A stretch of 64,000 nt of DNA from Solirubrobacterales bacterium (GTDB lineage Bacteria; Actinomycetota; Thermoleophilia; Solirubrobacterales; Solirubrobacteraceae): contig DAHUYL010000126.1 of NCBI GenBank assembly GCA_027315255.1, positions 1-64,000 of the forward strand. The letters run 5' to 3'. Of the stretch, positions 17,070-46,172 are shown piece after piece (the first letter of the stretch is position 1; each line of letters starts with the position of its first letter). The notes below the pieces were generated by a model, which made no database searches, was not told the DNA's origin, and saw only the letters and a list, made by a program, of their open reading frames with translations. The translations under genes were made by a program, and so were the position numbers.

Positions 17070-17278
17070 ATACGAGAAGCCGCGCCTCCTCGGCTCGGCT
17101 TCCCAAGGATCGCGCATCGCCCGGCGCGGCAGCTCAAGGCCCCGTGAGAGAGCCCTCAGTTGCAGGGCCGACGATGACCGAGCCGGCTCCGGAGGATCAG
17201 ATACCTGACAGGCGATCACGAGTGCTTTGTCGGGTTGCCCGGGATCCTCACGACCGCCCGCCACTCGACTCGCAGCGA

Positions 17279-17320
17279 GCGCCGGCGACACGCGCGCCGG
17301 CGACACGCGCCGGCGAGGCC
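17279..17320. repeat. short GC-rich tandem repeat
   Basis: GCGCCGGCGACACGC, two full units plus a partial third. Confidence 0.7.
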
Positions 17321-17386
17321 CGGGGTCGGGCGCGTCCGATCGCCCCTCCCCCCGGCCGGACTCGAAGCGGTCCGGCACACGCGTTC

Positions 17387-17489
17387 GAATCTGCCAACCC
17401 CCCCTCGCAGCGGGGGGATGGCAGCCACAGCCAGCTGTGAGATGGTCTGAGCTGCCAACCCCCCGCAAATCCCGGGGGTTGGCAGATTC
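17387..17489 (-). repeat. three-hairpin repeat element, copy 1
   Basis: Terminal inverted repeat GAATCTGCCAACCCCC...GGGGGTTGGCAGATTC; reverse complement closely matches 45879-45980 including internal GGCAGCTCAGACCAYCTCACAG and GCTGTGGCTGCCATCCCCCCGCT; homology continues to about 17353. Confidence 0.9.
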
Positions 17490-17685
17490 AGCTCGGCCCC
17501 CGTACACGAACGGTCCCGCGCGTCGAGCGCCCGATCGGACAGGGCACCGGTACGGGTTTGTGGTATAAGCCCCGGCACTGGGGGGATATCGAGGCGGCGA
17601 CCGTCGCGGTTCCCGATCGTCGCTGCTCGCGCGAGCGAGGTGGCGGCGATTCAGCGGGCGGGCTGGCGTCGACGAAAGGGCAGTC

Positions 17686-45506: not shown

Positions 45507-46172
45507 ATGGGATTCCTGGATCGCATCAGAGGAGCAGCGGAGTCGGTGCAGGCAACCACCGGCAAGGTTGGCATCGGCGCTTCCGCCGGCCAGATGGCGC
45601 TGGCCAGCAGGGCCCAGAAGCTGACCAAGGTCGGCATCGACACGCCCGCGCGGATCGACTCGATGACCGCCACTGGAAACACGGACGCTCCGGGCGGCAC
45701 CGAATACGACATCGGGCTGACCGTGATGCCGGCCGGCGGCGACGCCTGTCAGGTCACCATCAACCAGTACATCTACCCGTCGAACCCGTTCGCCGAGGGC
45801 GAGAGCGTGACCGTGAAGGTCGACGCAATCCCACTGATCCTGGGGAATCACGCCCCTTCCGTCAAGCCGCACCCAGTTGAATCTGCCAACCCCCGCGATT
45901 GGCGGGGGTGGGCAGCTCAGACCACCTCACAGGTAGCTGTGGCTGCCATCCCCCCGCTAAGACGGGGGGTTGGCAGATTCGAACCGGTGTGCCGGTCGCC
46001 TCGAGTCCGGCCGCGGGCGGGATCAGACGCACACGACCCCCGCCGGCGCGTGCGGCCGGCAGGCGGTCCCGGACGATCAGGCGGTCCCGGACGAAGCGTC
46101 GCCACCGATGACGACCAGAGTCTCCGGAAGCTCACCGGCGCTGCCGGTGGGCGCGCGAACGAGTCGACCTGA
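45507..46172 (+). CDS. hypothetical small beta-domain protein, 3' end overwritten by repeat element
   Basis: MGFLDRIRGAAESVQATTGKVGIG...ARIDSMTATGNTDAPGGTEYDIGLTVMPAGGDACQVTINQYIYPSNPFAEGESVTVKVD; GGACAGGAGG RBS; frame then runs through the element (ESANPRDWRGWAAQ...). Confidence 0.6.
   Translation: MGFLDRIRGAAESVQATTGKVGIGASAGQMALASRAQKLTKVGIDTPARIDSMTATGNTDAPGGTEYDIGLTVMPAGGDACQVTINQYIYPSNPFAEGESVTVKVDAIPLILGNHAPSVKPHPVESANPRDWRGWAAQTTSQVAVAAIPPLRRGVGRFEPVCRSPRVRPRAGSDAHDPRRRVRPAGGPGRSGGPGRSVATDDDQSLRKLTGAAGGRANEST
45879..45980 (+). repeat. three-hairpin repeat element, copy 2
   Basis: GAATCTGCCAACCCCC...GGGGGTTGGCAGATTC; hairpins at 45883-45915, 45928-45941 and 45943-45976; flank homology with copy 1 extends to about 46014. 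Confidence 0.9.
46060..46095. repeat. 18-bp tandem repeat next to element copy 2
   Basis: CAGGCGGTCCCGGACGAT / CAGGCGGTCCCGGACGAA. Confidence 0.9.

What the first reader, a model, noticed from the sequence alone, without database searches (positions are those of the whole stretch)
17353..17489. Copy 1 of a ~102-bp three-hairpin repeat element
Seen: the reverse complement of 17387-17489 reads GAATCTGCCAACCCCCGGGATTTGCGGGGGGTTGGCAGCTCAGACCATCTCACAGCTGGCTGTGGCTGCCATCCCCCCGCTGCGAGGGGGGGTTGGCAGATTC. It matches 45879-45980 with few differences, mostly in predicted loops. It folds as G/C-rich hairpin, short CACAG/CTGTG hairpin, G/C-rich hairpin, all inside a 16-bp terminal inverted repeat. A further ~34 bp beyond one end is also conserved. 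No ORF or family I know explains it; it could be a structured RNA, a REP/MITE-like element, or a protein-binding array.
Basis: partly seen in the sequence, partly recalled or inferred. Interest (0 to 1): 0.8.

Follow-up and report, generated by a model that had tools for sequence, protein, structure and literature searches.

The report
Palindrome inside a mobile-DNA repeat family
The repeat is real: about 30 copies lie in this soil-type actinobacterial genome, most of them as the inner palindrome of small transposons that lack their own transposase and probably borrow one of the IS701 type; the kind is known, but this family is new and its palindrome is oddly well preserved.

Summary
Both window copies are there, and the genome carries about 30 (28 by covariance model). 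The interpretation needs correcting. The core is not a stand-alone three-hairpin element. In most copies it is internal to a larger (~270-460 bp, one up to ~900 bp) non-autonomous transposon with terminal inverted repeats CAGTGCTTTGTCRGGT...ACCYGACAAAGCACTG, which in the best-preserved copy are flanked by a direct repeat TTAG. Autonomous IS701-family (DDE_5) elements of ~1.46 kb in the same bacterial family have the same type of end and YTAR-like duplications, so these are IS701-type MITEs. Window copy 1 is the whole element 17220-17549; copy 2 is truncated on its left. The core folds best as one long rod hairpin (-73 to -77 kcal/mol). Rfam, plasmid, phage and IMG/VR searches found nothing. 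One further copy lies in another genus of the family. Unusual: the 12-bp outer arms stay 83-100% identical in the most divergent copies, whose loops and flanks have decayed, and three divergent copies have no recognisable MITE flanks. So the palindrome may be separately maintained.

The parts
17220..17549 (-). Whole copy-1 element: IS701-type MITE (330 bp) carrying the palindromic core
   Evidence: End-to-end alignment with other copies; TIRs; G190 composite matches 17227-17499
17220..17235 (+). Terminal inverted repeat, well preserved end (GAGTGCTTTGTCGGGT; family consensus CAGTGCTTTGTCRGGT)
17532..17549 (-). Opposite terminal inverted repeat, degenerate (CGATCGGACAGGGCACCG)
   Evidence: sequence; alignment with intact ends of L002/L006/L008
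17387..17489 (-). Palindromic core, copy 1 (103 bp including GAATC ends; 95-nt conserved unit 17391-17485)
17353..17386 (-). Conserved ~34 bp adjoining the core: ordinary internal MITE sequence shared by A-type copies, not a separate motif
17387..17402 (+). Outer arm of the palindrome
   Evidence: (I1)
17474..17489 (+). Outer arm of the palindrome (perfect complement)
   Evidence: (I1)
45879..45980 (+). Palindromic core, copy 2
45981..46058 (+). Right MITE flank of copy 2; the left MITE flank is missing (no homology within 150 bp)

Best explanation
The feature is the internal palindrome of a multi-copy, mosaic family of non-autonomous IS701-type transposons (MITEs) in a Solirubrobacteraceae genome. 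Mechanism (inferred): an IS701-family DDE transposase acting in trans recognises the terminal repeats CAGTGCTTTGTCRGGT, moves the element, and duplicates a 4-bp YTAR target, mostly in intergenic DNA. The ~100-bp core rides inside. If transcribed from either strand it would form one very stable rod hairpin, which could stall polymerase or shield transcript ends. Shown: copies, TIRs, one intact duplication in a core-bearing copy plus others in related elements, matching autonomous elements in relatives, and the predicted fold. Inferred: mobilisation in trans and any effect on transcription.
For: About 30 dispersed copies. TIRs at the ends of the larger repeat; the TIR pattern scores 15 hits in the own genome against 0 for the reversed control. 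Intact direct duplications: TTAG/TTAG in core-bearing L006; CTAG/CTAG in core-less sister element L044; TTAA in L160 and CTAG in L153 and L062 of other genomes. Autonomous ~1.46-kb elements with DDE_5 transposase (PF13546; L158 E=3e-64) have ends TAGT[AG]CTTTGTTA or close variants and CTAA or CTAG duplications: L158, L167, L169, L174, L211, L212, L215. No transposase remnant inside the MITEs. Mostly intergenic by a rough gene caller. Rod fold, z about -9 to -12.6 in window and typical copies.
Against: No autonomous element with exactly this TIR was found in the (fragmented, 92% complete) genome; its two DDE_5 genes are of another clade and lack these ends. Most core-bearing copies have lost clear duplications, window copy 1 included. 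Three divergent copies (L026, L028, L030) show no MITE flanks and L010 none on its left, with the core more conserved than the flanks; a plain passenger would not be expected to do this.
Confidence: 0.78

Rival explanations
1. The 103-bp palindrome is an independently mobile or independently maintained unit (REP/BIME-like, or a nested mini-element whose own terminal repeats are GAATCTGCCAACCCCC) that MITEs have captured and carry.
For: L026, L028 and L030 have cores without detectable MITE flanks, and L010 lacks the left flank right at the core edge. Core length is nearly invariant (93-96 nt in all 28 aligned copies) while flanks are full of indels. Outer arms are 83-100% identical to the consensus in divergent copies whose loops have decayed.
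Against: About 25 of 28 copies do have homologous flanks on at least one side; no duplication was seen at core edges; several 'solo' copies keep a few flank bases by eye. Searching with the core biases towards cores with preserved arms.
Confidence: 0.17
2. A structured non-coding RNA or transcription-termination element under selection at the RNA level.
For: Very stable predicted fold. 10 of 22 copies with callable neighbours lie between convergent genes, more than 25% (p about 0.03, rough gene calls).
Against: No Rfam family reaches threshold. Covariation is not above column shuffles for any of three structures; RNAalifold covariation term about 0. No T-tract terminator. The convergent bias may just be insertion tolerance.
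Confidence: 0.08
3. An ordinary simple repeat or an assembly artefact.
For: Some copies lie near contig ends, as repeats do in draft assemblies.
Against: Copies sit in unique contexts in the middle of long contigs, differ by 4-25%, and have ordered ends and target duplications. A further copy lies in another genus.
Confidence: 0.02

Closest known systems
IS701 family insertion sequences (DDE_5, PF13546) of Solirubrobacteraceae, e.g. L158, L167, L169, L211
   Same: Terminal repeats TAGT[AG]CTTTGTTAG against CAGTGCTTTGTCRGG; 4-bp CTAR/YTAR duplication; same bacterial family
   Different: 1.46 kb with a transposase; the present elements are ~270-460 bp (one up to ~900 bp), non-coding, with a palindromic core absent from the autonomous ones
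Bacterial MITEs such as MITEPye1 (IS1182-type, PMC11578231) and Coxiella QMITEs (PMC10969869)
   Same: Small, TIR-bounded, no transposase, intergenic, transcripts predicted to fold into long stem-loops
   Different: MITEs are described as typically AT-rich (PMC10969869); this family is very G+C-rich, mosaic (two conserved inner modules), IS701-type, with a core conserved better than its surroundings
REP/BIME palindromes
   Same: G/C-rich extragenic palindromes in alternating orientation
   Different: No GTAG or CGTC tag seen at the hairpin foot (definition from the abstract of PMC3733652), ~30 copies instead of the often >100 of REPs (PMC2817692), and mostly inside TIR-bounded elements

Membership tests
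MITE (non-autonomous DNA transposon) | Dispersed copies bounded by terminal inverted repeats | tested here: met
   both ends recognisable in about seven core-bearing copies, one end in most others
MITE (non-autonomous DNA transposon) | Target-site duplication | tested here: met
   L006 TTAG/TTAG among core-bearing copies; CTAG or TTAA in sister elements; lost in most others, including window copy 1
MITE (non-autonomous DNA transposon) | No transposase of its own | tested here: met
   tblastn with IS701-family proteins finds nothing inside the elements
MITE (non-autonomous DNA transposon) | Autonomous partner with like ends | tested here: inconclusive
   Same type of end on IS701-family elements in relatives; none with identical ends, none of this clade in the own draft genome
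MITE (non-autonomous DNA transposon) | Mobility in trans | not testable with these tools
   Needs a transposition assay
IS701-derived | 4-bp YTAR target duplication | tested here: met
   TTAG, CTAG, TTAA, CTAA observed. That YTAR is typical of IS701 rests on general knowledge and on the autonomous copies seen here; IS5 uses YTAR too (PMC10359306)
REP/BIME | GTAG or CGTC tetranucleotide at the foot of a 20-40 bp palindrome | tested here: not met
   The 12 bases on either side of 27 aligned cores show no consistent tag
REP/BIME | REP-associated tyrosine transposase in the genome | not tested
Rfam RNA family | Score above a gathering threshold | tested here: not met
Structured RNA | Compensatory changes beyond chance | tested here: not met
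   arms are nearly invariant, so power is low

The most novel reading that the evidence does not exclude
The ~100-bp palindrome is a separately maintained, possibly separately mobile unit whose arms are recognised in sequence by a transposase or host DNA-binding protein, and which has been captured by IS701-type MITEs as a shared module and spread with them across genera.
Probability: 0.18. Interest if true: 0.55.

Novelty: new member of a known kind. Interest (0 to 1): 0.33.

Why it matters
It shows that IS701-type transposons in a poorly studied actinobacterial lineage have bred high-G+C, modular MITEs, and gives a set of ~30 natural copies in which to ask why an inner palindrome outlasts the transposon ends. 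It also illustrates that a strikingly foldable repeat need not be a functional RNA.

Tried and rejected
ISL3 family as parent: TIR resemblance from memory only; PF01610 fragments in the own genome showed no matching TIR pair. IS630 as parent, suggested by TA at the ends: no PF13358 hit in the own genome, and duplications proved to be 4 bp. tRNA-derived repeat (GGTTCGAATC-like stretch): no tRNA in the window. Rfam: only microRNA and CRISPR-repeat matches far below threshold. Three-hairpin RNA with covariation: rejected. Coding meaning of the second inner module: no open frame shared by all copies and no match to IS701 transposases. Orthologue of the gene next to copy 2 in relatives: none found. 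Plasmids, phages, IMG/VR: no match. Contamination as source of the G190 copy: the adjoining gene of that contig has no match in the window's genome.

Full report
Observation. The reported sequence is exactly the reverse complement of 17387-17489, with a related copy at 45879-45980. The window's draft genome (4.31 Mb, 231 contigs) holds about 30 copies: 11 full 'A' copies plus one truncated, and about 18 shorter-matching 'B' or divergent ones. The 12-mer of the arms occurs 55 times in the genome, only within these copies, against 0 for the reversed control. So the repeat is real and far beyond chance. The nearest named relative by flagellar FliI is Conexibacter sp. DBS9H8, so the organism is most likely a Solirubrobacteraceae bacterium.

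The core lies inside a larger element. Aligning copies with flanks shows homology running 100-250 bp beyond the core to terminal inverted repeats: AGGTGCTTTGTCAGGTCGAGCGCTCGAC... at one end and ...ACCCGACAAAGCACTG at the other. The best-preserved core-bearing copy (L006, C49) has TTAG directly outside both ends. The same TIR bounds sister elements without this core, e.g. C47:8659-9116 with CTAG on both sides. Window copy 1 is thus 17220-17549, one end crisp (17220-17235), the other degenerate (17532-17549), with no preserved duplication. Copy 2 keeps its right flank to about 46058 and lacks the left.

Parent family. A pattern search over 146 genomes of the bacterial family found the TIR in a few other genomes. 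One of these, L158, is a complete 1.47-kb element: CTAA | TAGTGCTTTGTTAG ... ACCTAACAAAGCACTA | CTAA, with a DDE_5 (PF13546) transposase, the domain typical of IS701-family elements. Searching PF13546 in two genera gave further autonomous copies with ends TAGT[AG]CTTTGTTA or close variants and CTAG or similar duplications. The own genome has two DDE_5 genes of another clade without these ends; draft assemblies often lose identical IS copies, so the partner may be missing from the assembly or extinct. Short TIR-bounded elements without transposase occur in other genomes too (L160, L153, L062). The simplest account is a set of IS701-type MITEs. IS630 (PF13358) and ISL3 (PF01610) were tested and dropped.

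Mosaic structure. Besides the core, a second conserved block (about 130-190 bp, e.g. C47 and C78:560-757) recurs in many elements with the same ends, roughly 82-91% identical. Neither block has transposase remnants, and the second shows no frame open in all copies examined.

Fold. All 28 aligned cores are 93-96 nt. Single sequences and RNAalifold agree on one long rod in which the two outer arms pair and the two inner arms pair: -73 to -77 kcal/mol in the window copies, z about -9 to -10; the divergent copy L030 is much weaker (z -2.7). Measured against column shuffles no structure shows excess covariation; the rod has 5 pairs with changes on both sides (26 of 500 shuffles reach this), not enough to claim selection on pairing. 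Because the arms hardly vary, this test has little power.

What is unusual. The core is better conserved than its surroundings: 92-93% within each subfamily against about 80% at aligned positions of the flanks, with few indels (alignment of G+C-rich flanks is uncertain). In the four most divergent aligned copies the outer arms remain 83-100% identical to the consensus while loops and flanks mostly drop to 10-75%. Three of these (L026, L028, L030) have no detectable MITE flanks and copy 2 lacks its left one at the core edge. Sequence conservation of the arms without covariation points to recognition of sequence, or to hairpin-templated correction, rather than to an RNA fold. Detection with the core as query biases towards this picture, so I treat it as a lead.

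Distribution. A covariance model of the core over 146 genomes of the family finds 28 copies here and one in G190, another genus, at the end of a contig. The G190 copy lies in a ~900-bp composite that is 85% identical to G000:C172 and 99% over 158 bp to the end of C106; the neighbouring gene of that contig has no match in the window's genome, so it is unlikely to be bin contamination from this species. This suggests recent transfer between genera, although a chimeric contig end cannot be excluded. None in plasmids, phages, IMG/VR or Rfam.

Context and function. Almost all copies are intergenic by a rough codon-usage gene caller. 10 of 22 with callable neighbours lie between convergent genes. 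Copy 1 lies between divergent genes, a glycoside-hydrolase-like protein and a PKD-domain protein. No canonical terminator was found in the region. A bidirectional block to transcription is plausible but untested.

Literature. A review of prokaryotic MITEs describes small TIR-bounded elements whose transcripts fold into stable stem-loops, typically AT-rich, mobilised by related IS in trans (PMC10969869); an IS1182-type example is MITEPye1 (PMC11578231). I found no paper in the held library describing IS701-type MITEs of this lineage; the library is incomplete.

Verdict. Ordinary in kind (a new MITE family), with one unexplained point: the persistence of the palindrome.

Noticed in passing
window 45507-46172: An open frame starting MGFLDRIRGAAESVQ runs through MITE copy 2, so the last ~100 residues would be encoded by MITE-derived or downstream DNA; no Pfam domain and no relative found in the fetched loci.
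   Followed up: partly
G000:C47:8659-9116 (L044), C78:560-757 (L054), C49:736-918 and many more: A second conserved ~130-190 bp non-coding module recurs in some 25-30 places, where checked inside elements with the same TIR, roughly 82-91% identical.
   Followed up: partly
L183 / G190:C38:134092-135704: A ~900-bp composite element in another genus, 85% identical to G000:C172 and 99% over 158 bp to G000:C106; looks like recent cross-genus transfer.
   Followed up: partly
L160:1124-1378 (G175), L153:1378-1519 (G002), L062:1369-1519 (G065): Other short transposase-less elements (about 140-255 bp) with the same type of end and TTAA or CTAG duplications in other genomes of the family.
   Followed up: no
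G011 (single-contig genome of the same genus): 26 DDE_5 matches, mostly of a clade different from the TAGTGCTTTGTTAG-ended elements: a large IS701 expansion.
   Followed up: no
G000:C80:49249-49479 and C2:13834-13920: Fragments of ISL3-family transposases.
   Followed up: no
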